A DNA stretch of 64,000 nucleotides, taken from positions 372,001 through 436,000 of the forward strand of contig BDIU01000146.1 in assembly GCA_002118135.1 (NCBI GenBank), given 5' to 3'. The notes under the pieces are model-generated. The model made no database searches. It saw only the letters and a program-made list of their open reading frames with translations, and was not told the origin of the DNA. Position numbers and translations under genes: made by a program. The DNA comes from Trebouxia sp. TZW2008. Lineage: Eukaryota; Chlorophyta; Trebouxiophyceae; Trebouxiales; Trebouxiaceae. Of the stretch, positions 4,646-56,734 are shown piece after piece; positions within the stretch are counted from its first letter, which is position 1; each line of letters opens with the position of its first letter.

Positions 4646-7600
4646 TCAGCTGTCTATTGGCGCTGTTTCAGACGGTGGGTACAATGGCAAGGGCGCATCA
4701 TCAACCCCATCAGTCAATGAATCAGCATCTGGTGTTGGCTGCTGCTTCTTACTGACTTCTGTGACAAACCTCTGAAGATCCTGCAGAAACTCATTTGGCC
4801 TTTCGTCCATTGGTACGTGCCCGCATGCTGAGTACTCTACGTACTCTGCACTGCACTGTCCCTGCTCTTGCAACAGATCAGCAACCTGCGGATCAATGCA
4901 ACCTCAGCATGACTGCCAGTAGACAAGTTGGAAATATGCGGCCTTCCATCAATAGGTACATGCCCGCATGCTGGGTATCTACGTACTCTGCACTGCACTG
5001 CCCATGCTCTTGCAACAGCTCAGCAACCTGCAAAACAGTTCAACCTCAGCATGACTGCAGACAGACAAGTTGTGACCATCTGGCTGTTCACCCATATATC
5101 TGCCCCCACACTGGGTACTCTACATACTCTGCACTGCACTGTCCCTGCTCTTGCAACAGATTAGTGCAACCTCAACATGGCTGCCAACAGGCAAGTTGCA
5201 ACAGGAACATTGCATTCATAGATACGTGCCCCACGAGCTAGGTATTCTAGCTCCACTGTACTGCACTGCCCCTGCTCTTGCATCAAGCCTGCAACCTGCA
5301 GATCGATCCAAACTCAACATGCCTGCCAACAGACCAGTTGTGACTATGTGGCCTTATGACCATCGGTACGTGCGTGCATGCTGGGTACTCCACATATCCG
5401 GCACAGCACTGCCCCTGCTCTTCTAGCAGATCTGCAATCTGCAAATCAATCCAAACTCAACATGCCTGCCAGTAGACAAATTGTGAATGTGTGGCCTTTC
5501 GTCCATTGGTACATGCCCGCATGCTGGGTACTATACATACTCTCAGCACCAACAAGAAGACCAAGTTGCTGCCCAGCCTGCTGGCTGCAGCAGCGCATGC
5601 AAGAAATGCATGACCGCGCCAAGATGATTGCTGCCAGTAATCCTATAATGACAATGCACTGACAAGCTGTTTGCTGAGCAAACACAGCAATGACCATGCA
5701 GCAGAGATGCAACTTCTGAAAGGCAATTCCTCGTATATTGGCGAGTCCACATATGTCGAGCCTATGCTCCACCTATGCTGAGCAATCAACTGTATCTCTC
5801 CTCCCTTTCACCACAATTGCTTTAGGCTAGCACAAGACTGAACTGGTCAGAGACAGTTCATTGCCCCAGTATGTAGCTAGCTGAGCCTGTCTAGCATACA
5901 TTATGCATGAATGAAGTAACAACATATGCTATCAAGATACAGTATGCTAAGCACAAAATTAGCATTGAGCATAAAGTAAACATGTTTCCCGCTGAAAGCC
6001 ATGGACAGGGCTTTGCTGACAACCTGTTTGCTGTGTACAGGCTGTACAGGGTCAGCAATGCAACACAAAGCAAGACTTTTGTATACTAGACAGCAAAAAA
6101 ACAAAGCAATCTGGCATTTTGGCTTTTGTGGTCAGAGGCTGTTCATTCTGCCTGTGATGCATATGACGTGAAAGCAATCAGATCAATGCAAGACATGTAC
6201 CTTTTTGGCTCCTCTGGTCAAAGGCTGATCCTTCTCGCCTGTGATGAACATGACAGGCTGCTTGATTTCTTCATATGGCATATCTGAGGGGAACGAGAAG
6301 GCCCTGTAGCTGTACAAACTGCCTCTGTCCCAATTGTCTGCTAGCATGGGCCTCAAGTAGCCCTCAATGACTGCCTACAACCATGTGTACAGCTCAGTGA
6401 GTGTCTATAGACATGCCACTTCGATTGTGTGTACCTGCATGATTTCAGCAGTTTCAATGTCTGCAGACATTCTTGTGCCACAGCTTCCATCCCAGATGTC
6501 TGCTAGCACGGATCTCATTTGAGTCTGACAGCCAAACGTGACACAATGATGATTGCAGGTCTTGCTATGCGCTGTGTACAGCATGATACGGTGTGTGCAT
6601 TGTTGTGTACGGCTTGCATCAAACAATCTGCACATGCACAGGCAACATCTGCGCTTTCCCAGACTCCAAGCTGTGTGAGGTGCACTGCACATTGACAGCA
6701 GTAAAAACCGCTTGCCAATATGTACAATGAACAAAGGCATTGCAAAAGATGCAGCAACATTATTGCAGACAACAAGCACAGTGTTGTATGGCTTGCATCA
6801 TTCAGTCAGTCAGCCTGTGCATATAACAAGTGCAGTTTTTGCATGATGTTAGCTGAGTGACATGCATTGTGCACCAATCAGTCCTCACACTGGGGGTTGA
6901 TCGCAAATAAGCACAAATGACAAAGGCATTCTTGAAAATGCAGCAACACTGATGACAGTCACAATGTTGAGAATGCTGACCTGCTTGACCGACTGATCTG
7001 CATCCGCATACACCTGCAGCTTGCCAAGCGCAACTTCGTCACGCCGTTTCTGCAGGTTCTTTCTGATGTAGTTCAGGCCTGCATGACGCATGCCTCATCT
7101 GAATTGCTGACCATGCTCAAATTCTCATGCGGCAGCAGCAAAACATAACAAACTGCACTGCTGCAGTGCCAACCACTGCTGATCATGAATGCTTCATCAC
7201 GCGTATCTGCTACGCTCAGGATTGAGCTTTGAGAGATTGAAAGGGACAAATCAGATTGCTGCAAAGGACATCGTCGCCAGAATATTACAAAAGGACGGAC
7301 AGGAAACAGTACAGGCAGCTGTATTCAACACCCCACAGCAGCTATCGCAAACTGCACTGGCATGTCTACAGCAACTAAAATCCAGGGTGCCCTCCTCTGG
7401 CCAGCTACAAGATACTGAAGCAAATATTTGTGTGTAAATTGTATGCCATGTGTGTCGTGACAGGAGCCTGTGCAAGTGATATCAGCCCCAAAGCATTACA
7501 ACAAAGGCCAGCAACTCTCACCTGCATTTTCATGTTGCAGCAGCGCCCGCATGTACAATCGCTGCAACTGCTGCCCGAGGCTAGCTCTCCAGATGAAGCT

Positions 7601-10600
7601 ATTTTTGTTCTCGTCTTTCTTCCTTCTATCCTCTTCAGCCCTCTTTTTGCTTGAAGTGGATGGGAGAGCAGGAGCCACAAATACAAAGCCACTGATAAGG
7701 CTTGGATTTCTGCATGCAGAGACATCGCCATTGGCACACACCCTCGGCACACATCCTTGTGCCATTGCAAGGTTGCTTGTGTGTTGCATCATGCTGATGA
7801 ACAACTTAAGATGCTAACATGCCCGCTTTTGAGCAGAACAGTTGTTGCCACAAGTGATTGTACCAGTGCAGTAGGCTATATACATTGATCCCTGGTGCTT
7901 CACGACTCATGATCAGTGGTGACTTTGTTCAAGCATTGAAATTTGCCTCCCATATGATTGACAATGGTATTGTTGGATACTCATGCCTGCCTTAAAGTGT
8001 GATGTGTGACGTGAGACAGAGTCCAGGGCGCTTCACCTCTTGAACAGTTCCATGGCTGTGAGCGCTCCTGCTGAGTGCCCAACTGCAATTGCTTGCTTGA
8101 TCCCCAAGGCTTTCAGCAGACCCTCTGCATAGCGTGCGCCTGCCTGCGCACCCAGTTCCAAAACTAGTAAACATGGAAATAATTGATTCTGCAGCCACAG
8201 AAGTCAGAAAGCCTGCCACACTGATGACACTCAAAGGCATGACTGAAATTGAGCAAGTATGTGACACTCAGCATACTGGGAGACAAACACAAGCAGTGCC
8301 CGACAACTCAACATGAGTCAAGAAGCCTTGTCCTGATGCTCTGACCACTAGATGAAAAAGTTTATATTGATGCTCTAAGCATGGATTGAGAAGTTGCGCC
8401 TTGATCCTCTAATGTAATTGAGAGGCTATGCCTTGAGGCTCTGAGGTGAACTGACAAGGACCACCAGCATGTCAGGCAGATGTTGCAGATGTGTGTCTTG
8501 CACAGCCTTTTGGGCAGACCTCACAGGTGTAGGCGTTGCCCTCGAATTTTTGGGACAACCCATGGGTCTGACACACTTAGACCTTGAGGCTCTGAGCATG
8601 AAGTGAGAAAGGTGGCCAGCGTGTCAAACAGACATTGCTGTTGAGGGTGAGCGAACTGTTGGGCTTGCCTCAGAGATGTGGGGGTTACCCTCAGGACCCT
8701 GGGGCCGACTCATGGGTCTGAAACACTCAGACCTTTGTGCTCTGAGCACAAATGGAAAAGGATGGCCGGCATGGCAGGCAGGAATTGCTGATGTGTGTGG
8801 ATGATGTGTTCAGGCTCACCTCAGAGGTGTAAGGGTTGCAATCAGGACCCTGGGGCCACCTCAAAGTCTCAGACGCTTTGCCCTTGTGCTCTGAGCATTA
8901 ACTGAGAAGGGCAGCCAGCATGCATGTGTCAGGCAGCTATTGTTTGTGAAATATTATGTGTGTGTACACGGCCTGCTGCTCTTACCTCAAAGGATTAGGG
9001 ATTGCTCCCCTTGGGGCAAATGACAGTTTTTGAACACTTGACCTTGTGCTCTTACAATGAACTGAGAAGGGTGACCAGCATGTCAAGCAGGAATTGCTGA
9101 TGTGTGTGCGTAACCTAAAGGGCTTACCTCTGAGGTGTACGGGTTGCCCTCTGGACCCTGGGGCCAACTCATGGGTCTCTCACTTAGACCATATGGGGGC
9201 CGGTCAAAGGCAATGACTCTACAGCCTTGCTGCCCACCCTGCTCTGACAATGGCTGCAGCACATCTCGCCTGCACCAAGCCAAGCAGAAGTTCACTGTGG
9301 CATTTTGTCTGTACCCAAACAACTCACACTGTATTTGGGGTGTTGGTGTACGAAAGGCAATGACTCTGCAGTCCTGCTCCCGTTTTGCTCGGATAACGGC
9401 TGCAGCACAACTGGCATGTAAGCAGGCAGAGGTTCACAAGGCAACCTTAACTGTACCCAAACACTTCAAACTGCAATTGAATTGAACGCACGCAATTGAC
9501 ATCTGCACAATTCAATCCTGCCCTCCTGCTCTGACAATGGTTGCACATCTCGCCTACAGTAGGTGCAGCAGAAGTTCATTGTTAACATAAACTGTATTGG
9601 CATCTATTCAAAGCAACCAATCTGCGGCCTTGCTGCCCACCCTGCTATGACAATGGCTGCAGCACATCCCGCCTGCAATGAGCCAAGCAGCAGCCGCTGG
9701 TGCACTATTTGCTGAAATCAGATGCTGTGAATGTTGATGCTGTTGATCTGCACACACAAAAGCAAAGCTAAAAGGGCCTTGTGGGCACGTTATCAAGCAT
9801 GTCCAACAATGCTGACATTTGCTTGTGAATCAAGGCAGTGGTCTGCAACGGTGCTCACCAGCTGAATGTGGACACGTCCAAGCCATGCATGAGGAGCACA
9901 GTCGGTTGTTCAGGGCCAACAGTGCCTGCTTCCTTGTAGTGCAGATTAGCGCCGTCAACAGCAAAAACAGCTCTGCTAAAGCAATCATGCAGAAATTATT
10001 GCTTTGTCAATCAAGGCTGTGGTCTGCAACGGTGCTCACCAGCTGAATGTGGACCCATTCAAGCCATGCATGAGGAGCACAGTGGGTTTGCCAGGGCCAG
10101 CAGTGCCTGCTTCCTTGTAGTGCAGGCGAACGCCATCAACAGTGACAAACTTGCTGTCAGGATCTGCCAGCTGCTCTGGAGGCACTGTGTCAGTGAGTGG
10201 CGGAGGCACACCATCGAGCCATGGCTGTAGCATGCCTTGAAACCATGGGATGGTTTCCTTGCGAACCTGACAGCAGGCATCAGGGTATGGGCAGGTATGC
10301 CAAAAGGCATTGGCAGGGCCACAGCTTGTCATAGCCAGACTCTGCCTGCAGACTCACCTGTCGGTTAAGAGCCTGTACAAGTCGTCCGCTTGCTCCTCTA
10401 TTTGACCTACATAAACGCCACGCCGTTGAGTTGCTACTTAGAGTTTTCTTGTGTGATCGAGCCACTTGCGCAGTCAGGAGTTTTGCATCTGACGCCCAAG
10501 CACAAACATAGAGCAAATAGCAATGCTGCGACAGCGTTACGCATTCAAGCAATACAGCGGCAACTGAAGTATGTCTGATCAGTTCAGAGCAGGTGCGGCG

Positions 10601-11339: not shown

Positions 11340-14300
11340 ATGGGCGCCCTGTCGGAGTTTGCTTGGCAGCAGCAACTGGACCGGGACGGACTTTGTTCCA
11401 AGCTTGTTTGCAAACTCCTGCCAGTCAAGGTACTTGGCATTGCAGACAGCGTAGTTCTCTGGTCCTCCGTGTGCTGATTGTTTCCTGATGCAGCCTGGTG
11501 ACGACAACCATGAGCTTTCCATGGACTACTGCATACAGAACCTTGAACAGCACAGATTTGGGGATGTCAACCCAAAGTCTGTCGAGCATCTGTATTCAGG
11601 GTAAGCTAAATTTGTTGAGGCAATTCTCGTATGGTTGTGAAATTTGCTGTCCAAGCTGATTCCTTTGTTTGCTCTATTAGTTATCCAAACGTGCTACTTG
11701 TGCATGAGGGCCCTTTCATGCTTGTGGTGATCAGCAGCTAGCTCGTTGCAGCAAAACATAGGCCTTGATAAGCTAAATTCATTTGATCATGAAGCTATTC
11801 TCATATTGTCATGATATTTGATGCCCAAGCTGATCCTCTGGTTGAATCAACTGGTGATCCAAGCATTCAACTTGAGCATGAGGGCACTTGTATGCACGTG
11901 GCAATCAGCAAACGGCTTAAGTTGCAGCAAAACACAATTCTTGACTGCCACGCCTTTTCTTACAGTAACACAAGCTGTTACTGTTGCTGCTGTTGCTGTT
12001 GCTGTTGTCTTCTATTTGCTCTGAACACCAAAGCATTGACAACTTCACTTGGCTTGCTCAGGCTGGGTGAAAGACTGGGCAGCCATTCTCAGTTGGGCAA
12101 ACAAAGGGCGCTTGCAAAGCTAGTGGCTGACTTCTTGCAACAGAAGCTGCCATCACAGCAGCTGGATCAGCATCACAACTTGCTGTCGCTGGTGTTTTGG
12201 CTGGCCAGAAGGCCACTGGAATCAGCATACATCCCTGCTGTACCTCAACAGGACATCAGGATAGGTCAGAGTGTGCTGCCAACATTCTGCTTCGTTCTGC
12301 AGAATCAGCATCTCACATACGTGCTGTATGAGTTGCATGTCATCATCTGCAGTCCTACATTATTGCAAAAGTGCCCAACACCACAGCATCATACAGTTCC
12401 ATGTCCTATACCAAATATACAGTCATCGCTGCTGAGTGAATGCATTGCTCCCTGTCTGAGAACAATCAGGCACTCCACCGCAGTGATGTCTTGATGTGAT
12501 TGACGATGATGACTGCTGGACAACTGTGCTGCAGGGACTAGTGCTTTGGTGGCAGCAGAAGAGGACCAGGTGTCTGCCTGGGGAGACGAAGCAGCAGTAT
12601 ACAGCAGTGATTCTGACCTGTCAGAATGGGAGCAGCCAAAGGCCTCAGATGATGACTCACTGCATTCTGAAGACCTGCACCAGCCAGATCATACTGCATC
12701 AGGTGCGTGTATAGGCTTGTATGGGCTTCTGTACGGAGGCTGGGCACAAGCATGAGCATCTAGCATCTAGCAAGTATCGGCTGCTGCCAGATAATGTTAA
12801 GCACTAGGATCAATAGTCCAGCATGCTCTGTTTGCTTGTTTAATCACCTTGAGCCCAATGCCGCTCAGCAAAGATCACATGAACCGTGAATGCCAGTCCT
12901 GCAATCATAAGGTAATTACTTGATGGACTGGATCTGATGCAAGTCAGGACATGTATTATCATTGCTCCCTGCAGAGACAGCCACTCTCTGAAACTCATCT
13001 GTGCCCTCACAAACCGCGCTGCCTCGCAACCATCAGATTGACGCATGTGCATCTAGCCCGAGATGAGAAACCCATCACTGAGTACTCCTGGGATGCCTCT
13101 CTGTCATTGCTGCTTGTTGCTGATCAGTGAAGACATCCAATAAGAGAAAAGGAAGACCACGTTCTGTTTAGTATTGCTGTTCACGCTGGTAATTGGTTGT
13201 TGACCTGGCTGCAGAGCAGAAGCCCAATGTTCCACCTAAGCATCTGATCAAGCAGCTGCAAGAGAAGCTGGCAGTGCACCTGGCCAAGTCAGACAGCAGT
13301 CACCAGCTTTAGAAGGTCTGCCTGCTGCCACAGTTGGCTACAGCCCATGGTAGCACTGACAGGCTCTACTCCCGTTGTGGGTGTTATGCTCGTCATCAAA
13401 ATGAACATGTCTGTTGTCATGGCTGCAGACCAGCAGCCCAACTCCTCACCCAAGCATCTGATCAAGCAGTTGCGGGAGAAGTTGGCAGTGCACCTGGTCA
13501 AGCCAGACAGCAACCAGCAGCTTCAGAAGGGCTGCCTGCTGTTACAGGTGGCTGCAGCACATGGCAGCACTGACAGACTCCCCCCTGCCTCTCACTGTAT
13601 GACTGAGCTCGACTTAGCACGGCAGGTGAGAACCACTAGCACTTGACTCAAATCTCACACTACAGATTGTGATGAGCCAAGACTTCATGGTCAAGTTGGG
13701 TCAAGAGGCAAAATCGATGCGATGTCAGTGCTGAAGCGCTCCGTTGTCCCTCTCACTGGGCAACTGAGCTCGCCTCGGCCCGAAAGGTACAGAATGGTTG
13801 CCTTTTGATCAGTTCTCACATGACTGATGGCAGTCAGCAGCTTCAAAACACCTGTCTCCCGTTACAAGTGGCTGCAGCCCATAGCAGCACTGACAGGCTG
13901 CCGCCTCCCTCTCAATGCACCACTGAGCTCAGCTTGGCCCAACAGGTACAAAACCAATCTGTCTGCAATCAGTATCATGAGTGAGCCTTGGTCATACCAG
14001 CAAAGTCGGGTCACATGATTGAATATGAGTCACACAAGTGAGCCTAGGTTGCATCATTGATCAGACTATGTCCAAAGCAGTCAAGGTGGTGCAAGCAGCA
14101 GAGCTGTGATGATTGCAGTCACTTGTTGCTCAGTTGACGTCTACTTCATGATCACAGCTGCACTCAAGGGGCATGAAAGGAAGCTCCCCAGCTGCAGCAG
14201 CAGCCTAGGACAGCCTGCAAAACACAGAATTCCATGTGAGAGCCTCACAGCGTATGTGCACTGTTTGTTGCTGCTATTTTTCTTGACTTTCTGCCCTCAT

Positions 14301-17300
14301 GCACCCTGCGGTCATGCAGATCCTGCGCATGTTGCAAAGGCACTGGATGCTGGACCAGCCTTTGCCTGAACAGAAAGGATCGCAGCGTCAGTGCTGTGCA
14401 TCAGACCCTCGTTGTCCAGCGCTTCTTTGTGCTGTTTCTCATTCCACTTGCAATGCAGGAGCTGCGCATGCTGAGAGGGACCAGGAACCTGGACCAGACG
14501 CTTGAGATGCTGTGCCTCAGGGCTCAAACAGCTCCTCTCCCCTTACTCTTTCTTGTTGACTTTCCTCAATCCTGATAGAGGTGCTGTGTATGCTGCGAGG
14601 GGCTCAGGGTCCTGGTCCAGCCTTCCGCCTGGACAGAAGGGATGGCAGCTTCAGCGCTGTGGAGCAAACTCTTGTTGCCCAACACTTCTCTGTGCTATTT
14701 CTCATTCCACTTGCCATGCAGGTACTGCGCATGCTGAGAGGGGCACCAGACCCTGGACCAGCCTTTCGCCTGGACAGGAGGGACGGTAGCTTCAGCGCTG
14801 TGGAGCAAACCCATGTGGCCCACCTGTCACACAGCAGCCTGCACCACCTGCTGAACCTCTTTGCATATGCTGGCACTGACCTGCACAGGTAGACAGGCAG
14901 CAATCAACGCTGCCATCCGCTCTTTGCCTGTTTGCTCTTCTACACTTGACCTCAATCTTTCACGTTGCCTCCCGTCTTGCCCGGTCTTGCTGCATTTCTC
15001 CAGCTGCAATCTTGATCTGTTGCCGTTGAACAGACAACTTCTCATCACTCGCTTTGTCTGCACTGTAAGCTGTAGGCCTGTGTGGATGGGGTTCAATCAG
15101 CTGCACTTTGCCTTGCTACTCACTGGTCCCAAAATTCAACAGTTTCATCATTGCGCCTGGTGCCTGCACTGTAGGCTGCAGGACCTTGTGGACAGGGCAC
15201 AGACAGCTGCCATTTCTGCGCTTGCATTCAAAGTCTTCACATCGCACCGTATTTCTGCACTGTCTTCCGGCACCAGAACTTCTCTTCTCACCCAGAAGTT
15301 CTCGTTGCGCCTCTCATCTTGACCTCTACTTGCACTGCAGGCTGCAGGCCTTTATAGACAGGGTTCAAGCTGCTGCCAGCTATAACTCCAGAGCCCAGCC
15401 ATCAATCAGCCCAACTTTAGCTGCCTTTGCAGCTTCTTTGGCCCATCACATGCATCCCATGTGGGCTGAGCTGGTGCGGATTGAAGAAGGGCTACAGTCT
15501 GTGCATATGACTGTGCCTAAACAGGACGCTGGCATCCTGCTGAAGCTTGAATACCAGCTTCAGGTCTGCATGATACTATCCCTCTTGCTCAATGGTGCTG
15601 TTGATCTGTTGTATGTATAGGTCCATGATGCGCCCATGCGTTTAGCTTTCAGGTCGTGGTTTGTATGCCCAAAGCAGTCCTCAACGAGGGCTATCCAACC
15701 TGCATGCAACAGCAGCGTCAACGCGATGAGGAGCCTGTCTATCGTTGAAATAGCTAGGCATTGACAATGCTGTGTCGTACATATCTCAGGACCGCCTAGT
15801 GCATATCAGCTTTGTTCGACGAGATTTGCATCAGTTGTCTGTGCAGCAAAATCTCACACAAACTGCCCAGCAGAATGACGACATCTACAATTGCAGGGTT
15901 CATTCTATGGCAAATCGGCCTTCTGTAGCAGGTATGGACTGAGGCATTGGCAACACAAAATGATGCTGCACAGCATGTCCACCCATGGATGCCCAGTCGA
16001 CTCTTGCATTTGCAGTTTGTTCTATGGCAGGTCGGCCTTCTGAAGCAGGTGTGGACTGAGGCAATCACAACAGAAGGTGATGCTGTACAGCATGTTCACC
16101 CATGGGCTGCCCAATTGACTCTTGCAATTGCAGGGTGTTCTACGGCAGGTCAGTCTTCTGAAGCGATTGTGGACTTAGGCCTTTTAACGCAAGGTGACGC
16201 TGAGCAGGAGCCTGTCACAGCATTGCAGTTGAGCTACTGAGCAGCTGTCGCCTGCGGTTGGCTCTACGGCAGCCCAGACTTCTGTAGAAATCAACAACCC
16301 ATGATTTGCCCAGCTGAACTGTGCTGTTGCAGGGCATTCTGTGGCAGGTCGGCCTTCTGGAGCAGGTGTGGACTGAAGCCTTTCAATACAAGGTGACGCT
16401 GAGCAGGAGCCTGTCACAGCATTGCAGTTGAGCTACTGAGCAGCTGACACCTGCGGTCGGCTCTACCTAGAAATCAACAACCCGTGATTTGCCCAGCTGA
16501 ACTGTGCTTTTGCAGGGCGTTCTATGGCAGGTCGGCCTTCTGAAGCAGGTGTGGACTGAGGCCTTTCAACAGAAGGTGACGCTGAGCAGGAGCCTGTCAC
16601 AGCATTGCAGTTGAGTTACTGAGCAGCTGACACCTGCAGTTGGCTCTGCGGCAGGCCAGACTTCTGTAGAAATCAACAACCCGTGATCCGCCCAGCTGAA
16701 CTGTGCTGTTGCAGGGCATTCTCTGGCAGATTGAGCTTTTGAAGCAGGTGTGGACTGAGGCAGTAACAACAGAAGGTGATGCTGAGCAGGAGCCTGTCAC
16801 GGCATTGCAGTTGAGCAGTTGCCTACTGACCAAGCTGCCTGGCCTAGTGAACCAATACAGCCTGCAAGGGGGACCGCGTGGTAAGGCAGGATGTGTTTTC
16901 TAGTGAGTTTCTGGGAGCCTGCTAGACGCATAGTGAAGCGGTGTTGAGAGCAAATGCATTGCATTTGGAAGCGAAGCTATCAGAATCAATTGCCTCATGA
17001 AACACTGCAAGAGAATTGTCTCTGTGTTATCAGCTTGTCTGTTGATACACAGAAAACACATCAGATTTGGGTCATTGTCAGAGAGGCTGTGTGCTGAGTG
17101 CAGAGCCTCACTGTACTTCAGCATTCTGTCTGACATATCTCACAAGACTCGTCTATCCAGTCAGCCAGGCTGTTGTCAACAGGCGGTCAGGAGATAGCTG
17201 CTGTGCTTCACATTCTAATTCAACCGCACCATGACAGTTGTGATGCACATCAGCTATGTGTGTAACAATGTCATGGGGCCCCACTGTTGCATACAGGCGG

Positions 17301-20300
17301 TCAGGAGACAGCTGTTGTGCCTCAAATGGTCCAGAGCATACAGCCGCACCACAGGATCACTTTGCGTTAGGTGTCTGTCCAGCATTAGTCACAAGTTCAG
17401 AGCCGGCTTTCTTCTTATTCTACAGGCAGTCAGGAGACAGCTGTTGTGCTTCATATCATGGTTCAGAGCATACAGCCGCTGTTGACAGCCCTGCAAGCCT
17501 GGCTCTTTGGTGCATGTCCCAGTACAGCTTTATGCAGCAATGAGCAAAATTGTATGTACAGGTGGCCAGGAAACGGCTGTTGTGCTTCATATCATGCTTC
17601 AGAGCATGCAGCCGCTGTTGACAGCCCTGCAAGCCTGGCTGTTTGATGGCCTGCTTCAAGGAGCCCCTGACAACTTCTTCATCTGTGAAGGTCAGCTTGC
17701 TTACAATTTTCACATTTGTGTTTTGATGAAGCACAAGGCAGGATCTTCTGATTCTGTTTATCAGCTCAAAGTGCATTGCAGTATCATGTATCCATTGTAT
17801 CCCTACATAGCCTCTCACACGGACCGCGTACAGCAGTAGTTTTGACCATGCCTGAGCTGTGATGCAGTTGCATGCAACAAAGGGCTTTCTGCCAGGAACC
17901 TTGCATGAAGTGCAAATTTTTGATTGCCTTTACACCGCTCATCTGCCCCTTGAATGCAGAACAGACTGTGTCTGTGGACTCCTGTTACTTCTGGAAGGAA
18001 GCTTTTGCATACAGCAGCTTGAACTTCTTTGCTCGTCACAAGCCCTGCTTGATGTGACGCCTGTAGTAGCTGCCACATCAAAGCTTCACTGTTCCTTGTG
18101 TGCAGATCAGACTGTGTCTGTGGACCCCCGTTTCTTCTGGAAGGAAGCTTTTGCATACAGCAGCTCATGATTGTTTGCTTGTCACAAGCCCTGCTTGAAG
18201 TGACGCCTGCAATAGCTGCCATATCTCAGCTTCACTGTTCCTTGTGTGCAGATCAGACTGTGTCTGTGGACTCCCCTTACTTCTGGAACGAAGCCTTCGC
18301 CCTGCGGCAAACTGCCTCAGAAAAGCTGGCCTGCCCTTCCCTCTTGAGTGCAGCAGCTCAGGATTCTTTGCTTGTCACCAAGCTTGCTCGCTTATGAGCT
18401 CCTCAGTCAAAGAAGCTAAGCTAGATCTTGGCTGCAGATCAGACAGTGTCTGTGGACTCCCCTTACTTCTGAAAGGAAGCTTTTGCCCTGCGGCAAACTG
18501 CCTGCCCAGCATTCCTGCAGTCCCTACCACATGGCATGTTGTCACTAGCCTTGCTTCAACTGAAGTTTGTTTGGCATGACACTGAGGCTTGCCTGCCCTT
18601 TGTGTGCAGACCAGACAGTGTCTGTGGACTCCCCTTACTTCTGGAAGGAAGCTTTTGCCCTGCGGCAAAACGCCTCAGGGCTGGTAGCCTGCCCGGCCTT
18701 CCTGCAGCCACTAGCGCAAGGCATCCTATCCACAGGCAAAAGCTTGCTGCTACTTAGAGCCCGACAGGGCGTACAGTCCAGGTACAATCATCATCTGAGA
18801 CACAAACACTGGTGCGACGACATCTTGTTGCAAGGGCAATGCAATAGAGAACCAATGGCTGCATCCTGACTGTATTCATACTTCTGATTTTGAACTGGCC
18901 CACCCTCCCACCCTGGTTATTCGCAGCAAGATTGTGCAGATGAAATGGAGGCGTCTCATGTGGTTTTGATCAAGGCAGCGTCATGTCAGAGGTGTGTTGT
19001 CTGAGCCATACGCCTGTGTTGCACACTATAACAGCACATGACCTGCTGCCAATGTTTCCTGCCAGACGACCAGCTCTTGCTGTGACAGCCAACAGGTCCA
19101 TTGAAGCCCGCTGTAAGTCATCGTTGGAAACCTGCTGTCAAGTGCAGATCAGCAGTACCAGGACAGGGGCAGAATGCAGTGGGGCAGCCAAATGCCTGGC
19201 AGGTAATCAGGCAGTCATGACCCATAATAGATCCAGAGATACGATGTCCATGCCTGCTACGGCACATCATTGTAAAGCTGTTATAAACTGCAGATCAGCA
19301 GTATCAGGACAGGGGCAGAATGCAGCAGGGCAGGCGAGTGCCCTGCAGGCAATCAGGCAAGACATGCAGGGCAGCTTGAGCCAAAGGTTTCTGCACAAGC
19401 TTAGGGCGGCTGTCCAGGTGAACCGGTCTATTCTTTCTGACAATCTTTTCTCTTTGACTTGCTTGTTTCACACTTCTGGTGCTTATGCAAAGGGCTGAGC
19501 CACAACCTGCCTGCACAAGCACAGAGCAGCTGTCCCAGTAGAACCCTTTATTCTTTCTCACAGAGTTTCTCTTTGGCTTGGTTGTTGCTCACTTCTGTCG
19601 TTCATGCAAAGGGTTGAGCCACAACATGCCTGCACAAGCCCACATGTGAGAGGACAGCTGTCCAGATAGGTTTTCCCAACCTCCATGGACTTGCACAGCT
19701 GTCTACTGCTATGGAAGACAATTCCATACCCACAATAGGGAGTGAAGGCAGAGGTCTGCCTGTGCAGGCTGTGAATCAATCAGATGCCAGCCAATCAAGC
19801 CTAGGCTCAGACACATCTCAGCCACGTAGCAGCAGCAACAGGGCAGATGCAAACAAGGGCACTACAGCCCTGAGCTTGGGTCAGAGGATGGCTCGCACCC
19901 ATGCTTCCTGGACACCCCTTGCCCTTGAGCAACTGCCCATGCTGTCTTCATCTGCCCATTCTGAGGCTGCCTATCCCATGCCTCAGCAGCAGCAACAGCA
20001 GCAGAAGTCTCAGCAACCAGAGTCACAGCATCAGCAGCAGCAGCAGCAGCAGCAGCAGGAGCAGCAGCAGCGGCAGTATCAGCAGCAGCAGGCTGTGAGT
20101 GCAGTTGGAGCTGTCGATGAGCAAGCACATGTTTCAGGCGTCGTGATGCCCACAACGCCTCAAACCCAGCACCCAAAGGCTGCTTTGTCTGAGCAAGGTG
20201 CTGCCCCAGGCAGACCAACAAAACTTGAGTATGCAACAGCTATGCAGAGCAATTCCTCTGAGTCTGGTGCGATATTGACTGGCTCTCATGACCACCACCA

Positions 20301-20301
20301 C

Positions 20302-20349
<48 letters not shown>

Positions 20350-39400: not shown

Positions 39401-42400
39401 CAGACCCTCTTAGCTCCGAAACCACAGCCCTCATTCACTGTTTTTGGCAGGTTCCCAAAAGCTGCCGACACAGTAGAGAGGCAGGTGCCATCTAAGAAGT
39501 ATCAGTTCTCAGTTGCAACAGGTCAGACCTTGATTTCTCTTAATCATGTGTTTACAGCATAGAATGTGGTGTCCTGTGAAAAGGGACAACTGTAGTGCTG
39601 TGCAAGTGTAAGCTCTCAATTGCAGCAGGTCAGAAACAGCTGCTACTGAATCTGTGGCCATAGCCCTTGCTCATTGTCCTTGACACAAGTGCAGTGCTGT
39701 GTGATTGTTAGCTACAGACCACTTTTGTGAGAGCTGCGATTGGTGCCTCCAATCAAGCCTTTGCTGATTGCTGGTGACAATGCTTCACCACTAAGTGAGG
39801 TATTGGAGCCTTATGGTGCTAAAGCACTGACACAAATGAAATGCGTGCTGATTCATCATTGCCCTTGAAGTCTTGAGATGCAGCTGCAGCAGCAGTGGCA
39901 TTGAATCGTACCCTGATCCTGCCTCAGTTCACCCGCTACTGTGATGCGTTGTGGCATTGGTCCTTAGATCACACGCTTCAGTGGGTGTGCCGCTATGTTG
40001 GAGCTACCAACATGACGTTGCTCTTCGATGTCCACAAGACACTGTGACCAATGCATTGCTTCATTAGTGCCCTTGCAGTTTTGGGATGCAGCAGCAGCAG
40101 CAGCAGCAGCAGCGGCGCTGAATCGTACCCTGATCCTGCCTCAACTCACCTGCTACTGTGATGCGCTGTGGCCCTGGTCCTTAGACCACACTCCCCAATG
40201 CGTGTGCCGATTTAGCAGCTCACAACATGACATTACCCTTTTCATTTCCACAAGACACAGTCTTTAGTTGATTGATCCATTGTTGGCCTTGCAGTTTTGG
40301 GATGCTGCAGCAGCAGCGGTGGCGCTGAACCGCACCCTGATCCTGCCTCAGTTCACCTGCTACTGTGACGAGCTATGGCATTGGTCTTTGGACCGCACTC
40401 CCCAGTGGCTTTGCCGCTACGTTGGAGCTACCAACATGACATTGCCCTTCGCATGCCCACAAGACACTGTTGCCAATGCATTGATTCATTGGTGCCCTTG
40501 CAGTTTTGGGATGCTGCAGCAGCAGCAGCAGGGGCGCTAACTAGACCCCCAATGCTGCCTCAGTCAACCTGTTTTTGCAATTAGCTCTGACATTGGCTCC
40601 TGTTTTTGCCTGTATGGCTCTCGGTCATATCAGTGTTACCTGAAGTGGATTGTTTGCCTTACAGTTTTGGGCTGCTACAGCAGCGGCAGCGGCTTTGAAG
40701 CGTACCCTGATCTTGCCTCAATTCACCTGCCACTGTGATGAGCTATGGCATTGGTCTTTGGACCACACCCCTCAATGGATGTGCCGCTATGTTGGAGCTA
40801 CCAACCTGACATTGCCCTTCACATGCCCACAAGACAAAGTCCTCACTTGATCGATCCATTGTTGGCCTTGCAGTTTTGGGATGCAGCAGCAGCAGCAGTG
40901 GCGCTGAACCGTACCCTAATCCTGCCTCAGTTCACCTGCCACTGTGATGAGCTATGGCATTGGTCTTTGGACCACACCCCTCAATGGGTGTGCCGCTATG
41001 TTGGAGCTACCAATATGACATTGCCCTTCACATGTCCACAAGACACTGTGCTCAAGCTGCTGAACCTGTATGACCAACCAAGCAAGTATGGAGTGGCTGT
41101 GCAGTACCGGGAGAGCGTATTCTTGCAAAATCCCAGGACGCCTGCTGCCATCAAGGTGCAGTCAATATGCATCAGGCAACTTCTGCCCTGTGGCTGGCTG
41201 TGATCAACATACAACCATCATCATTCCCTGCACTGTAACTGGGTTCCATGACTCAGCTGGGTGTTGATGTATGTAGCAAACACGAAGCCGTGTGTAAGGA
41301 CCTCACCTCTCTTCATGCTCAGTACACATAAGTCAGGATAGCACAGGACCCAACTGGTGTGATACAAACGATTGCTCCAGTATATACCTAGCTGGGCCTG
41401 CTGAGCCTGTCTGGCATACGTTTAGAATGAAGAACTGAAGGCTGCCTCAAGAACAAAGCCTGCAAGCAGCTCTATCCAAGTCCTGTGACTGACTGGGAAG
41501 CTGATAACCCATGCAAGTCAAGTATGCAATCCTCACATCATGTTTCATGATGCAGAGGGAGCAGTACAAATCCAAGATGTACCTGTTGGGGTCTGCAATT
41601 TTTGCATGTCAAGATGCAGCTGATTGCATTCCTGCATGCCCAGTGATCAATCCTTGTGCAACAGGCACACTGTATAGCCTGCGTGCATGACCAGCTAATT
41701 GCAGGCTACAAGCTTGCACCCTTGTGCAAGTGCTTTGCAATGCAGCCAATAGAATGCAGCAAAGCAAGTGACCCTGTCTTCTGTTCAAAATGCTGCTGAA
41801 CAAAGAATGTCTTGCTGCAGAGTTCAAGTCATGTCTTTCATGCACTGTCACCACATAAGTCCTTGACCAAACACCATGCAACTCTCACCCGGCAAGTCCT
41901 GAGCATTGCTGTCAAGAATGTGCAGCATTCAACTGCTTTGCCTATGATCAGAATGCTGCAAGAGGCATCACACGTTAATCTCATGATTGTGCAGCACTTG
42001 ACTGCTTTGCCTGTGCGCAGAATGGGGTGAGACGCGTCACACTGCAAGACAAGTACCCGCTACCCGCATCACAGCAGCAGTCAAAGCAGCCGACTTTTCA
42101 AGGATCGTCACAACAGCCAGTGTCAAAGCAGCTGAGCCCGCAGCAGACGTCACAGCAGATTCCTAATCAGATCCCCCCCTGGCATTTGTCACAGCAGACC
42201 AGCCCTCAGCATGCATCACAGCAGCTGCCACAGCAGTCAAGCTCCATGCAAGCATCACAGCAGTTGCCTGGCAAGTTGGACACATTTGAAGATACACAGC
42301 GTTCGCAGCAGCAGTCTAGGTCACAGCAGGCATCGCAGCAGCTGCCACAAGAATTGGGATCACAGCAACGAGGTTCACAGCAAGAATCGCAGCAGTTGGC

Positions 42401-43022
42401 ATCACAACAGTTGGGATCACAGCAACAAGGTTCACAGCAGGAATCACAGCCGTTGGGATCACAGCAATTGGCCTCGCGACAGTCAGGATCACAACAGCGG
42501 GATTCACAGCAGGCATTGGAGCAATTGGGTTCACAGCATTTGGCATCCCGGCAGACAGGGTTAGAAGATGCATCTCAGCAGTTTGCATCACAAAAATCAT
42601 CGCAGTTGGGGTCACAGCAATCAAGTTCACAACATGCATCACAGCAATTGGGTTCACAGCAACGAGCTTCACAGCAAGCACCACAGGAATCAGGTCGACA
42701 ACATGCATCACAGGGGCTGAATGCAAAGCGGTTGGGATCACAGCATTCAAGTGAACTTGATCGTCTGCAGTGGCAGCGCAGACTATTGGCTGCATTTGAC
42801 AACACACCAAGCTCAGAGCCTATTGTCACTCAGCAACCAGTCAGTTGGATTGTGACTGAAGCTGAACTTAGAGATGCCTTGTCACAGTACAAAGATGAGC
42901 GGGTCCTGCATGTCACAGACATGGGCCATGTGGTACTGAATAGCTATAGAGCATGGGATATGCGTAGGTCACATGCGACGCATGACAACTGGCGCTTTAC
43001 GCTGTTTGCTGCTGTGCAATAA
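33486..43022 (+). CDS. XEG113-like GT77 glycosyltransferase (probable arabinosyltransferase), type II membrane protein, 9 exons
   Basis: Exons: 33486-33708, 33803-34084, 34537-34650, 35425-35565, 36526-36697, 37436-37571, 39165-39398, 40874-41155, 42021-43022. All phases close, giving 861 residues ending in TAA. The N-terminus is a signal anchor (WAVITALIALVCLAGLLLF) that places the enzyme in the Golgi membrane. The nucleotide-sugar transferase domain shows VDNTLIVSYANAHHVDYALNW, the metal-binding SDLDTVW (DxD, split across exons 3-4) followed by NPLPYF and EADILVSSDW. Further family features are GFMFLRASRNTT (exon 5), VVHANFCAGGAKRHRFRE (exon 7) and ALNRTLILPQFTC (exon 8). In plants XEG113 adds arabinose to extensin hydroxyprolines; acting on algal hydroxyproline-rich wall proteins is inference. 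The last exon inserts ~220 residues of Ser/Gln repeats before a conserved-looking end (ERVLHVTDM). The start at 33486 is the ATG directly before the anchor. Confidence 0.88.
34700..35030 (+). repeat. Donor-side copy array of GT77 exon 3
   Basis: Two strong copies at ~34713 and ~34823, plus a weak one at ~34998, repeat the exon 3 end that encodes the DxD motif, with its donor: GATGTGGTCATATCTGATCT, GGACACAGGTGAC. Period is ~100-110 bp and the true donor is at 34651. The second copy has lost the second Asp codon (CATCTGGAAACAG). Confidence 0.88.
35270..35424 (+). repeat. Acceptor-side copy of GT77 exon 4
   Basis: ~35275-35355 (CTTGCAGTGTGGCTGCACAA, CCTGAAGCAGACATTCTGGT, CAGCAGTGATTGGC) is a close copy of the exon 4 start (35425). 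A shorter, older remnant (CCCTGAGGCAGACATACTTT) is at ~34900. Confidence 0.85.
35610..35732 (+). repeat. Dispersed repeat D1, copy 2
   Basis: TTTGTCCTTACATCAAATTG, then GCAGTCAGAATGCAGTGATT, then GTTGTCCTTACACC and TTTGTCCTTACA. This is the clearest copy of the family, in a GT77 intron. Confidence 0.8.
35861..36086. repeat. Large near-perfect palindrome (108-bp arms, 10-bp loop)
   Basis: Arms 35861-35968 and 35979-36086 are reverse complements with about four mismatches, separated by CCCTTTGACA. The transcript would fold into a ~100-bp hairpin inside a GT77 intron. Arm sequence such as GACGCTTTGACATCAATGTG resembles the 3' end of exon 4 (GGACGCTATGACATGAACGT) and its downstream copies at ~36140 and ~36424. 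The palindrome therefore appears to have formed from an inverted exon-boundary copy. Confidence 0.9.
36130..36480 (+). repeat. Donor-side copies of GT77 exon 4
   Basis: ~36138-36215 (ATCATGGGACCCTTTGACCT, GATGAGTCATCAGACATGG) and ~36420-36475 (GAAGGCTTGGAAGATCTTTG, GGTCATGGGTGG) resemble the exon 4 end (GAAGGCCTTGAAGATCCAGA, GTCATGGGACGC). They are more diverged than copies in other arrays. Confidence 0.6.
36835..37300 (+). repeat. Donor-side copies of GT77 exon 5
   Basis: ~36843-36950 repeats the last ~95 bp of exon 5 (CAGGCTAATCCTTTGCGACA, GAACCACTATTCATGGTGGG). ~37228-37290 repeats GGTGGGATAGGACTGACCGC and the donor GTAAGCATG. Intron sequence (GCATCATGTAAA, AGGCATGA, ACTGCATCC) is duplicated as well. 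Confidence 0.85.
37655..37990 (+). repeat. Donor-side copy array of GT77 exon 6
   Basis: Three copies (~37660, 37795, 37930), period ~135 bp, of the exon 6 end (GGTCATGTCTTCTTCTCTCA then AGCTGTACAAGGTGACTCA), together with shared intron (CTCAACGCTACT, CACTGTATGCACGCAT, CATGCCTCGTATCTGT). Copies 2 and 3 are highly similar to each other, which implies recent duplication. Confidence 0.9.
38480..39164 (+). repeat. Acceptor-side copy array of GT77 exon 7
   Basis: Copies at ~38488, 38640, 38692, 38815, 38963 and 39115 precede exon 7 (39165). They share CAGAGAGCGCGTTCCCCATT-like starts; longer copies (38488, 38815, 38963) include GCATGTGGT, CCAACTTTTGCG and GGCGGGGCCAAACGCCACAG. Some intron is co-duplicated (CAGGACTG, ACATGTACACTGAACT). 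Confidence 0.9.
39465..39640 (+). repeat. Donor-side copies of GT77 exon 7
   Basis: ~39470-39530 (AGAGAGGCAGGTGCCATCT, CAGTTGCAACAGGTCAGACC) and ~39597-39640 (AGCTCTCAATTGCAGCAGGTCAGA) repeat the exon 7 end and donor (39399). Confidence 0.8.
39875..40873 (+). repeat. Acceptor-side copy array of GT77 exon 8
   Basis: Five copies at ~39882, 40078, 40293, 40502 and 40663 precede exon 8 (40874), period ~160-215 bp. Anchors are TTTTGGGATGC(T/A)GCAGCAGC, CCCTGATCCTGCCTCA and CACCTG(C/T)(C/T)ACTGTGATG. Copies at 40078, 40293 and 40663 stay in frame for ~50 codons (through the equivalent of GATNMTLPF) before losing the frame. The GCA/GCG run encoding AAAAA varies in length between copies. Confidence 0.92.
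41340..41430 (-). repeat. Dispersed repeat D2, copy 2
   Basis: Shares with ~5828-5912 the segments ACTGGT, ATTGCTCCAGTATATACCTA, GCTGAGCCTGTCTGGCATAC. Reverse orientation relative to the copies at 44.9, 45.3 and 51.0 kb. Confidence 0.7.
41910..42020 (+). repeat. Acceptor-side copy of GT77 exon 9
   Basis: ~41920-41980 (GTGCAGCATTCAACTGCTTT, TGATCAGAATGCTGCAAGAG) copies ~41990-42045 (GTGCAGCACTTGACTGCTTT, TGCGCAGAATGGGGTGAGAC), which spans the intron end and exon 9 start. Confidence 0.8.
42060..42780 (+). repeat. Ser/Gln-repeat coding region in GT77 exon 9
   Basis: Imperfect 12-24 bp units (TCACAGCAGT, TTGGGATCACAGCAA) encode repeating (A/G)SQQ and LGSQQ. The frame is open and joined in phase to the glycosyltransferase, so this looks like a coding minisatellite. 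Confidence 0.85.
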
Positions 43023-43385
43023 CAAATGTTTGACTACTACATGAAATTGTGACGCTTGACGTTCTTCCGAAACTAGCACACCTCCCAAACTGACATTCTT
43101 CCCAAATTTGAATCAGTGTGTCAAGCGTAGTGTTTAAAGTAGACAGCATTTTCAATAGGTCGAGGGACAGCTTGACTGTCTTCAGTTTGACCTTTCTGCC
43201 AGCAAACAATCACATTGCCATGACGCTAAGCGTGATTGGCTCAACTGGCACACGGACTACGATGCGCGCACATGACATGCCACGGGTTCACTCAATGGTT
43301 TCGGAGCGACAGAACTCAAGGTCAGCTAACTTTTTGGCATACGACCTGCTTGAGGTTTGCTGCTTTATCACATTGTGAGGAAAGC
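43023..43385. other. Short intergenic region between GT77 stop and the first U-box gene
   Basis: 363 bp with no recognised gene. It presumably holds the GT77 3' UTR and the promoter of the next gene. Confidence 0.5.
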
Positions 43386-46300: not shown

Positions 46301-47992
46301 GCGCAGAATTGCTAGCAAGTGCACCATCTCATCTATGACTGTCATCATTGTGTGCATCCGCCTGTGTTGCCAGTTTTGAGGAGTGTGGATGCTGCCTGTC
46401 TCCAAATCTGAAGACTAGATGCGTTTCTGCGTGCAGTAGTTTGACTACAGCCGCTGCTGCTTTGCAGACTTGTATACAAAGCATTTCAAAATCTCGTGCA
46501 TTGCATAGGGCTACGTGGTGCTACATGCAGAGACTTGACATCTGCAATGGCTAGTTTGCAGGCTTACATACAGGACATTTATAAGTCCTAGGCACTTTTG
46601 CATATTCCTATATGCTCGTTTGTTTGGAGGCTGCGGTCATGACATGCGTGCTTTCTTTGCGCAACATCATTATCTAATAATGTTTTACTATGTCATAGAC
46701 TGCCTGAACCTCATGGACATAAGTCATTGCCACTGTGTGGCACATGCGATCAGCCTTGTTGGCTGGCTAAAGCATGTAAATCTCCTATCTCTCTCTCTCT
46801 CGCTGCATGCCATGATTTGACTATAGCAGCATCTTGCACACAAGACAGCTCAGCACCCTTGCTGCTAACTGTATAATCCCACCTGGGTGAATAGATGCAC
46901 TTCTGAAGATTGCTGAATGCCATGACTTGACTACAGCAGCAGTTTCTTTGCAGGCTTGCACACAAGACAGCTCAGCGCCCTTGCTGGCTTGCACTTAAGG
47001 CAGTTGAAGATTTTCTGCATTTTGGCATATTGCTGCATGCAGAACTTTCACAGCAGCGGCTGCTTTGCAGGCGTGCGTACAAGACAGTGCAGAATGCATG
47101 TAGCACCACATTACCAGCACCTCAAAACCTTTTGGAGGCGTTACTCACCAGAATTGGTGAAGATGCGCACTTCACAGCTCTGACATTTCAGGAGTTTCGA
47201 GCTGCCATGCAAAGCACCCTGGAGCAGGGAAAAGGGTTCAATCCCAGCACCTTAGGAGACAGTAGACCCAGCTGGCAGTACAAAACTGGAATTGCTGTAA
47301 TGCTCTTTGGGATATGCCTTAAGTATTGCTGGTACCAATCATGTGTGTTGACAGCTGATCTTAAATCAGCAACTCAGTAAGCCAGACTGTGTTAGTCTGT
47401 ACATTGAGTTGTTGAGCATGATGGCATGACACATCATCGCTTTGCATAGCTACAGGTCTGGAGTGACCCACTGGCACATCTTGTGTCCATGTGTTTGTAG
47501 CATACAAATCAGAATGAGTAATGTACAGGCTGCCCAAATCTGCTGTTGAGCAGTCTCACTTAAGCCTTGTTGTGTCACATATGTGTGCTCAGCCCTACTG
47601 TTAGATACTCTTCCTCAAGCCTTGTTGTGTCACAGATGTCTGTCCAGATCTGCGTTTACACATCCTTCCTCATGCTTTGTTGTGTCACAGAAGCCCAGAC
47701 CTGCTGCTACATGCTCTTATTCATGCCTTGGTGTGCCACAGGGGTCTTCTGCCAAGATTCAAAGCACAGACAACTGGCTGAAACAGCTGTGCAAGCATTA
47801 TACACCATGCTAGCAGACGTCCAGCAGTGCAAGAACATGCTGTGGTTTACACATTCAATGAAGGACATAGCCACGAGCCTGGCTGCCACCATACGATCGC
47901 ACAAAGGCCAGTACGTCATGAAGCTGACTTTGGCTGCCTGCCTTGCTCCTGTCTGGTGCCAGGTGTGCTTCTAGCCTCTGCCTGAGCTACAA

Positions 47993-48025
<33 letters not shown>

Positions 48026-54974: not shown

Positions 54975-55181
54975 ATTGTAGATGTTGCAGGAGCGGCTGC
55001 CACCTTTCTCCAACTGCAATCTCTGAAGCAAGCTGTCTTGTGCAGGCATTCTGCCTATGCTGGTGACTGCCTTTGGCAAAAGCTCAAGTTGTAGCAGTTG
55101 ATGCAATTGGAGTACAAGCAATTCGTGTCAGGGGCGGCTGCCATCTTCTCACAGCTGCATTGTCTGCTGTCTTGTGCAGGT
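54975..55181 (+). repeat. Acceptor-side copy array of a U-box B exon
   Basis: ~54985-55090 (GGAGCGGCTGCCACC, CTGTCTTGTGCAGGCATTCT, GCCTATGCTGGTGACTGCC) copies ~55128-55235 (GGGGCGGCTGCCATC, CTGTCTTGTGCAGGTATTCT, GCCTATGCTGGTGGCTGC), which spans the intron end and exon start at ~55182. One copy is clear. Confidence 0.85.
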
Positions 55182-56734
55182 ATTCTGCCTATGCTGGTGG
55201 CTGCATTGGCAAAAGCTCAAGTCATAGCAGTTGATGCGGTTGGAGTGCTAGAAATCCTCTTGAGACATCTGAAGGAGGCAAGTCAGCATCTTGCAGCCCG
55301 TCTATCAAGCTTTATGCCATGCTGAGCATTAACTTGTCCTGATGATACTGCATTTGACTGTTTCAGCAATCTGCTGGGCAGTGATGCTAGGTTTTGACTG
55401 TTGCCGCAATCTGCCGGGCACAGCATACAGTATGCACAGATCCTGCGCACTGCTTTGATGGACATGAGATATACTGTCGCTGACGATTATCGCGCATGCC
55501 AAACACAATTTGTTTGCCTGCAGACAAGTGAAGTTGTAGCGCTGCTGATTCGCTTGCAAGCACACCATCACATTTGCAACTTGCTCTGCCCAGTCTCAGA
55601 GTTACACGGACAAGACAAGGAGCTCAGAGCAGGTATGGCTGATGACATCTGCCAAGTTGTGTCCATGTTATTCATCTGATGGCTGTGATGAGTGTTTGTT
55701 TCATTCAACATGTTTGTGTTGGTGCAGCCATTACTTTGTTTGGCAAAGATTGGCTAGCGATTCCAGATGATGAGCTCAGGCTGCTGCAAATCTTGCATCC
55801 AATTAGACTGCTTTACCAGCTCATGAGTCACCACAAGCTGGCATCATCAGATCCAACACAGACTCTACATCAGCCCTTCTCCTGGTCAATGGGAAGCTAT
55901 TCGGAAAGCAGCATGCAAAGTCTTGTTTGCTCTGCAGCTGCTTCTGGACAATGCCAAGCACATTGAGATGATTGGTGAGCCCAACAACACATTCTGGCTG
56001 CATTCACATTGCATTCAGAATGCTTGTGTCGTCCCAAATCGTATTGAAGCAGCAATTGAGCATTCTGTATGCCTGCTCCTGCTCTCCTTCAGCAGACCTT
56101 TGGCGTGCCCTGTGCTGGATGCATACATTCACTGTTGATGCACAAAGCAATCAATATGCTGCATCATCTGCATTGTGGCACATTAGCTGGTGTATTTCTG
56201 AGTGCTTTGTCCTCATTCCCTATTGCATGCAGTCACATGCACTGAAGTGAACTCTCTGCCAGCAATGTTTGCAAATGCAGAGAGATTAATCAGGATTCAG
56301 GTCCAACGATCTCCTATCAGCTGGGAGTCATTGCGCAGGCTATGTTGTTGGATCACATTGGTGACCCTGCGCTTGACGTCATACAGGTCCTCAGGCAAGT
56401 TGTCAGGTCCCAGACTGCCAATTATGTTAGCTGCGTAAAGCGTGGCTTACCCAGTGCAACCATCAGGCAGCATAATGCATGCGTACACATCACGCAGTCA
56501 GGCACTGTTGCAGCAGGCATGCATGCTGACTGTTTTGTCTTTTTCCGAGTATGTTCTGTGAGTTGTAGATTCTTTCATAGAAGTAGCTTGCCTAGCAACA
56601 TGTTCTGTGCAGCTTATGTACTTCCTTTCAACTTGCGCCTGTATTGCCATCATTCCCATTCTGCACTGTTTAGACTGCCTGGCTGAGAGGGAGTTGCTTG
56701 ACTGATGAAGCTGATCCAGTGACCAGGTCACATT

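What the first reader, a model, noticed from the sequence alone, without database searches (positions are those of the whole stretch)
4856..55240. Introns built from tandem, diverged copies of exon boundaries
In the hydrolase, GCP5, GT77 and, less clearly, the U-box genes, introns carry 1-6 tandem copies (about 100-200 bp each) of the neighbouring exon's edge together with its splice site and adjacent intron. I count over 20 such arrays at independent boundaries. This is not classic whole-exon duplication, because copies are partial and mostly frame-broken. It is not introner-like insertion either, because each array is made of its own host exon. It looks like a genome-wide process (replication slippage, templated repair, or repeated unequal exchange focused on splice junctions) and I know of no named class for it.
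Basis: partly seen in the sequence, partly recalled or inferred. Interest (0 to 1): 0.9.

Follow-up and report, generated by a model that had tools for sequence, protein, structure and literature searches.

The report
Introns grown from exon-edge copies
In what is likely a lichen-type green alga, most long introns of three genes carry tandem copies of the edge of the neighbouring exon with its splice site; the copies likely arose by repeated small DNA duplications, are likely spliced out, and decay like dead sequence, so these introns appear to lengthen by copying their own borders.

Summary
Gene models for GCP5 and GT77 were made by spliced alignment to Trebouxia proteins, and for the hydrolase from a draft protein. 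In these three genes 26 of 50 testable splice junctions have copies of their junction region in their own intron (two doubtful, one without exon bases), well above foreign introns. Copies run from the junction part-way into the exon; none of 52 in GCP5 and GT77 holds a whole exon. Of introns of 600 bp or more, 15 of 17 have them, against 2 of 8 testable shorter ones. Units join intron and exon and repeat every 94-415 bp (median 160). One 2.9-kb array region matched nowhere else in the genome, so these look like local DNA tandem duplications, not introners. Divergence from the parent exon (14/11/25% at codon positions 1/2/3, 24% in intron parts) is what neutral decay beside a constrained exon predicts; splice dinucleotides are not kept beyond that. 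Tandem arrays occur at about 3 per 10 kb in other loci. Whether duplications target junctions or merely survive there is open: purely intronic arrays are too rare (1 of 20, 43% expected, P 2e-4), but a matched test gives only P 0.05. The nearest precedent is one potato gene.

The parts
4745..10266 (-). alpha/beta hydrolase gene, modelled exons 10040-10266, 9128-9269, 8037-8188, 7522-7709, 6981-7078, 6201-6374, 4745-4885
   Evidence: draft protein matches PDB hydrolases (best 5ng7, E 4.8e-11); exon edges from spliced alignment of that draft to its own DNA
4949..5543 (-). 5 acceptor-side copies in the intron before the last modelled hydrolase exon (4745-4885); one of them (5499-5543) aligns only from 38 bp into the exon
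   Evidence: own score 85, foreign maximum 12
8463..8863 (-). 3 donor-edge copies of hydrolase exon 9128-9269
   Evidence: own score 61, foreign maximum 12
9353..9961 (-). 1 donor-edge copy of exon 10040-10266 (9804-9961) and 3 acceptor-edge copies of exon 9128-9269
   Evidence: own scores 105 and 55, foreign maxima 12 and 15
11373..24999 (+). gamma-tubulin complex component 5 (GCP5) gene; 16 exons used in the tests
   Evidence: spliced alignment to P0001 (Trebouxia sp. C0005, 54% identity); edges curated by hand; 18782-20774 uncertain
13198..13366 (+). acceptor-edge copy of exon 13429-13625, exon part 152 bp
13722..13945 (+). 2 donor-edge copies of exon 13429-13625
14296..14721 (+). 3 acceptor-edge copies of exon 14722-14888; alternate units share intron parts, so a dimer unit of about 262 bp seems to have been duplicated
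15040..15212 (+). 2 diverged acceptor-edge copies of exon 15341-15563
   Evidence: scores 23 and 22
15891..16714 (+). 5 acceptor-edge copies of exon 16715-16880
   Evidence: own score 113, foreign maximum 14
17292..17561 (+). 2 acceptor-edge copies of exon 17562-17690
17900..18609 (+). 4 acceptor-edge copies of exon 18610-18781
21192..21956 (+). 4 acceptor-edge copies of exon 21957-22224
22712..22799 (+). donor-edge copy of exon 22445-22623
22912..23253 (+). 2 acceptor-edge copies of exon 23254-23430
23528..23634 (+). donor-edge copy of exon 23254-23430
24150..24281 (+). acceptor-edge copy of exon 24282-24464
33486..43022 (+). GT77-like glycosyltransferase gene (PF03407 in its homologues); exons 33803-34084, 34537-34650, 35425-35565, 36526-36697, 37436-37571, 39165-39398 and 40874-41155 used
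   Evidence: spliced alignment to P0003 (Trebouxia sp. C0004, 47% identity)
34714..35027 (+). 3 donor-edge copies of exon 34537-34650
35238..35352 (+). acceptor-edge copy of exon 35425-35565
36848..37296 (+). 2 donor-edge copies of exon 36526-36697
37650..37984 (+). 3 donor-edge copies of exon 37436-37571
38474..39164 (+). 4 acceptor-edge copies of exon 39165-39398
39457..39529 (+). donor-edge copy of exon 39165-39398
39850..40873 (+). 5 acceptor-edge copies of exon 40874-41155, exon part up to 182 bp
   Evidence: own score 125, foreign maximum 14

Best explanation
These introns contain tandem copies of their own exon edges, likely made by repeated small tandem DNA duplications (copies typically about 160 bp apart) whose unit straddles a splice junction, so that the extra copy falls on the intron side, is likely spliced away with the intron, and decays neutrally. 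Shown by the sequence and calls: units join intron and exon bases, copies lie in the host intron and in direct orientation, they start at the splice junction and stop part-way into the exon, they carry substitutions in the ratio expected of dead copies beside a constrained exon, and some arrays repeat whole units. Inferred: that the copy continuous with the rest of the exon is the one spliced in, which rests on homology and not RNA; that the duplications come from replication slippage, template switching or unequal exchange; and that selection removes duplications that would change the mRNA, which leaves junction-straddling ones as the visible survivors. The result would be intron growth: removing the arrays takes the median tested intron from 732 to 344 bp.
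For: Own-intron copies at 26 of 50 junctions, with foreign introns scoring far lower. 35 of 37 copies in the upstream intron begin within 12 bp of the acceptor edge, 15 of 15 in the downstream intron end within 12 bp of the donor edge, and 0 of 52 reach the far edge of the exon (GCP5 and GT77). Divergence from the parent exon is 152 of 1074, 117 of 1093 and 265 of 1072 at codon positions 1, 2 and 3, and 24% in the intron part. Splice dinucleotides are kept in 40 of 48 copies against 36.8 expected from positions 1 and 2, P 0.18. The 80 bp upstream of acceptor copies resemble those of their own parent more than all 11 foreign parents' in 24 of 35 copies. The 2.9-kb GCP5 array region has no other match in the genome, in a search that skips very common words. 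Collapsed introns. Arrays occur on other contigs.
Against: No RNA evidence and no DNA of a relative, so neither use of the outer copies nor polarity is proven. In several copies next to the parent the intron part has diverged far more than twice the exon rate or cannot be recognised although the copy is 88-94% identical in its aligned part, which simple duplication plus neutral decay does not explain. No age gradient away from the exon: nearest copy less diverged in 8 of 16 arrays, more in 8, P 0.12. Array density differs about 9-fold between the window and 50-kb blocks, 0.6-5.2 per 10 kb.
Confidence: 0.78

Rival explanations
1. Pure survivorship: small tandem duplications hit the genome uniformly. 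Those inside exons are purged, and those straddling a junction or inside an intron survive, so nothing about splice junctions is special.
For: Uniform placement over CDS-safe positions on collapsed introns already predicts 57% junction arrays. In-frame coding duplications also seem to survive, e.g. the coiled-coil repeats of block C55, read by eye. If intron parts decay fast, pure intronic arrays are missed; the matched test gives P 0.05.
Against: Only 1 purely intronic array against 19 junction arrays, expected 43% pure (P 2.1e-4; power about 0.99 under neutral intron divergence). By inference junction-straddling units should survive less well than pure intronic ones, which makes the excess harder to explain.
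Confidence: 0.45
2. Old duplications refreshed by gene conversion from the exon: exon parts of the copies are rewritten from the parent exon while intron parts drift beyond recognition.
For: Some copies next to the parent are 88-94% identical in the exon part but have no recognisable intron part.
Against: Where intron parts align they differ by 24%, twice the 12% of codon positions 1 and 2, as expected without conversion.
Confidence: 0.2
3. The copies work as alternative exons, decoy splice sites or recursive splice sites.
For: AG or GT is kept in 40 of 48 copies; copy tails are more pyrimidine-rich than random intronic YAG sites (0.57 v 0.50, P 1e-4, but copies of one array are not independent; outermost copies alone P 0.06).
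Against: Splice sites are kept no better than codon positions 1 and 2 (P 0.18); the codon-position pattern is that of dead copies; 10 of 47 have stops and 10 of 47 frameshifting gaps.
Confidence: 0.06
4. Introner-like or transposon insertions.
For: Many independent introns carry extra sequence.
Against: Arrays match their own exon while foreign introns score at noise level, and the one region searched by DNA has no other place in the genome.
Confidence: 0.01
5. Assembly artefact.
For: Tandem repeats are error-prone in assembly; reads could not be inspected.
Against: Most copies differ by 10-30% and arrays differ in spacing and breakpoints; similar arrays lie on many contigs.
Confidence: 0.01

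Closest known systems
[quoted passage not shown] passages and section 5 read)
   Different: One event that made a new intron and inserted exon sequence; here over 20 junctions in three genes, up to 5 copies each, donor edges too, and the apparent result is a longer intron holding dead copies
Rogers model of intron gain by duplication of an AGGT exon segment (PMC3443670 and PMC2891723, passages read; Gao and Lynch 2009 and Hellsten 2011 known only as cited there and in PMC4974935)
   Same: Local tandem duplication, mRNA left unchanged by splicing
   Different: Units here straddle existing junctions instead of lying inside an exon, and no new intron position is claimed
Introners (PMC9860276, search listing only)
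   Same: Many introns of one genome gain sequence by one process
   Different: No shared element found; each array is copied from its own exon edge
Tandem exon duplication, mutually exclusive exons (recalled)
   Same: Tandem copies of exon sequence inside introns
   Different: None of 52 copies holds a whole exon and they decay as non-coding
Short tandem duplications from break repair or template switching (recalled; PMC5730883 seen in a search listing only)
   Same: Local direct duplications of small size
   Different: Breakpoints here are seen only through old, selected survivors; the repair route is untested

Membership tests
Tandem genomic duplication (DNA level) | adjacent direct copies of one contiguous genomic segment | tested here: met
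   arrays and offsets; units contain intron and exon bases; intron part hard to recognise in some copies
[quoted passage not shown]
   copies are anchored at an existing junction, 50 of 52; AGGT content was not itself scored
[quoted passage not shown]
   no DNA or gene structure of a relative
Introners | similar sequence in introns of many unrelated genes | tested here: not met
   foreign introns at noise level; one region searched genome-wide matches only itself
Tandem whole-exon duplication or mutually exclusive exons | copy contains a complete exon with both splice sites | tested here: not met
   0 of 52 in GCP5 and GT77
Functional alternative or decoy splice sites | splice signals of copies conserved beyond neutral decay | tested here: not met
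   40 of 48 kept, 36.8 expected, P 0.18
Functional alternative or decoy splice sites | transcript evidence of use | not testable with these tools
   no RNA data
Junction-targeted duplication | more junction arrays than survival predicts | tested here: inconclusive
   P 2.1e-4 naive, 0.05 matched

The most novel reading that the evidence does not exclude
Splice junctions are themselves hotspots of tandem duplication in this alga: a junction-focused mutational process keeps copying exon edges into introns genome-wide and is the main way its introns lengthen, leaving strings of dead exon edges that record each intron's history.
Probability: 0.3. Interest if true: 0.85.

Novelty: new variant of a known kind. 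Interest (0 to 1): 0.62.

Why it matters
How introns get longer is usually put down to transposons and small insertions (general knowledge). Here a third of the tested intron sequence of two genes (4,870 of 14,922 bp) is covered by copies of the introns' own junction regions, and removing the arrays halves the median intron. If general, such introns carry a readable record of duplication at splice junctions, a natural laboratory for how splicing tolerates many competing splice sites, and a source of errors in algal gene models.

Tried and rejected
A home-made HMM gene finder split genes into hundreds of tiny exons and was dropped. Splice sites of the copies first looked conserved; with the proper baseline (codon positions 1 and 2 of the constrained parent) the excess was not significant. 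Allowing the dinucleotide to shift a few bases would raise the count but also the chance level, so the strict count is reported. A 'conveyor' in which new copies arise next to the exon was tested and not supported. Breakpoints clustering at the splice site, suggested by short recognisable intron parts, was weakened when most intron parts proved distantly homologous to their own array. The extension script let some alignments jump onto the identity diagonal; only extents free of that are used. One search had one GCP5 exon start one base off (16714 for 16715), corrected from then on. One search used 40 of the 48 copy spacings, typed by hand; one search repeats it with all 48, and its numbers are the ones reported. 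One search entered 26 of 35 for the tail test; the recount gives 24 (own parent) or 27 (own parent or next copy), and 24 is reported. The C55 protein search gave only metagenome proteins without gene structure. Gao and Lynch 2009 is not held. U-box genes not modelled.

Full report
Source. The window is part of an unnamed 68.5-Mb genome in 527 contigs. Its GCP5 draft is closest to a Trebouxia sp. C0005 protein (54% identity) and its GT77 draft to a Trebouxia sp. C0004 protein (47%). So it is inferred to be a Trebouxia or near relative.

Is it there? Tandem Repeats Finder and self-BLASTN find many direct repeats of 100-200 bp: 33 arrays over 20.6% of the window, none in one shuffle. For every modelled junction I searched up to 110 bp of exon edge plus up to 60 bp of intron, with the 8 central bases masked, against the rest of its own intron. 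In GCP5 and GT77, 21 of 38 junctions match at score at least 20, above all 60 foreign draws; in the hydrolase 5 of 12, against 30 draws. Reversed and reverse-complement introns, run in GCP5 and GT77 only, stay at 18 or less except one reverse complement of 23. Two of the 26 are doubtful: GT77 intron 35566-36525, which holds a palindromic element and gave that 23, and hydrolase intron 6375-6980 at score 20. One of the 26, the GCP5 donor of intron 11601-12061, matches only intron sequence from 15 bp past the donor; it is the array I count as purely intronic below. One GCP5 junction (score 15) and five hydrolase junctions (12-19) beat their foreign draws below the threshold and are not counted.

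Anatomy. GCP5 and GT77 yield 53 copies at score at least 20. Aligning whole exons to flanking introns gives 52 matches: 35 of 37 upstream ones start within 12 bp of the acceptor edge, 15 of 15 downstream ones end within 12 bp of the donor edge, and none reaches the far edge. The 48 spacings between copies run from 94 to 415 bp, median 160. In some arrays the whole unit, intron part included, is repeated, and in GCP5 14296-14721 a dimer is repeated. In other copies the intron part is hard to recognise, although the 80 bp before 24 of 35 acceptor copies resemble their own parent better than all 11 foreign parents (27 of 35 if the next copy is allowed too).

Are the copies alive? Against the parent exon, copies differ at 14.2%, 10.7% and 24.7% of codon positions 1, 2 and 3, and at 24% in the intron part (two palindromic-element copies left out). 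If a copy decays freely while its parent exon is held by selection, positions 1 and 2 should show one lineage of change and position 3 and introns two. That is about the observed factor of two. AG or GT is kept in 40 of 48 copies, 36.8 expected (P 0.18). Ten of 47 copies have a stop and 10 of 47 a frameshifting gap. So on average the copies behave as dead sequence.

Is it junction-focused? Long introns have arrays and short ones mostly do not (length against copies, Spearman 0.91 over 20 introns; partly a necessity, since copies add length). After removing arrays the median intron falls from 732 to 344 bp. If units of the observed lengths fell uniformly and only placements leaving the coding sequence intact survived, 43% would be purely intronic; I see 1 (GCP5 11601-12061, which itself starts close to the donor) against 12 acceptor and 7 donor arrays, P 2.1e-4. 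Simulated power for pure intronic duplications is 0.99 if introns diverge at twice the lineage rate. But intron parts often diverge faster, so I also compared only the 8 arrays (6 of 12 acceptor, 2 of 7 donor) whose 80-bp intron part alone would be detected: P 0.05. I therefore leave junction targeting open. Acceptor against donor (12 v 7) is not significant (P 0.36).

How general? Four 50-kb blocks give 1.8, 4.4, 0.6 and 4.6 arrays per 10 kb against 5.2 in the window. Seventeen 3-kb loci placed by short DNA patterns (eight of them by a splice-like pattern) give 16 arrays in 51 kb, with 10 of 17 loci hit. These counts are of tandem arrays, not of proven junction arrays. In block C39 an unrelated gene that I read by eye as an MFS transporter (no database call) has one donor-edge and one acceptor-edge array. 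Some arrays lie in open coding frames (C55 15427-16083).

What is known. Tandem genomic duplication is an accepted route to new introns (PMC3443670, PMC2891723, passages), and in potato RdRp the unit straddled a 3' splice junction (PMC4974935). Among the rows listed by searches (12-25 of up to 4,439 papers each) I saw no title or abstract start that describes introns built from exon-edge arrays. In two Trebouxia genome papers 'tandem' does not occur, and 'intron' occurs 0 and 1 times. Subscription papers are not covered.

Noticed in passing
window 27454-27606, 35588-35721, 49115-49227, 51229-51365, 58382-58507: A dispersed repeat of about 110 bp in both orientations, matches 69-82% alike; a similar stretch seems to occur in C55 near 45.9-46.2 kb by its translation.
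   Followed up: no
window 35861-36086: A 226-bp near-perfect palindrome (93% self-complementary) inside a GT77 intron.
   Followed up: partly
window 46656-46805 and 63203-63363: A pair of inverted copies about 150 bp long, 79% identical, 16.7 kb apart.
   Followed up: no
window 42311-42690 and 61201-61481: CAG-rich tandem repeats; the first lies in an open frame coding for glutamine- and serine-rich sequence, the second in a stretch with open frames on both strands.
   Followed up: no
L034 5427-6083 (block C55 15427-16083, minus strand): Tandem repeat of a coiled-coil-like segment of about 37 residues in a long open frame, a coding counterpart of the intron arrays.
   Followed up: partly
L028-L032 (C46 60001-110000): This block has only 3 local arrays, about nine times fewer per base than the window; the reason is unknown.
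   Followed up: no
window 24312-24410: The public Trebouxia sp. C0005 model P0001 lacks a conserved GCP5 stretch that the Asterochloris protein P0002 and this window have; gene predictors may be misled in such genes.
   Followed up: partly
window 13215-40874, intron sides of copies: Intron parts of several copies diverge faster than twice the exon-part rate, or are unrecognisable, in copies 88-94% identical in their aligned part; unexplained.
   Followed up: partly
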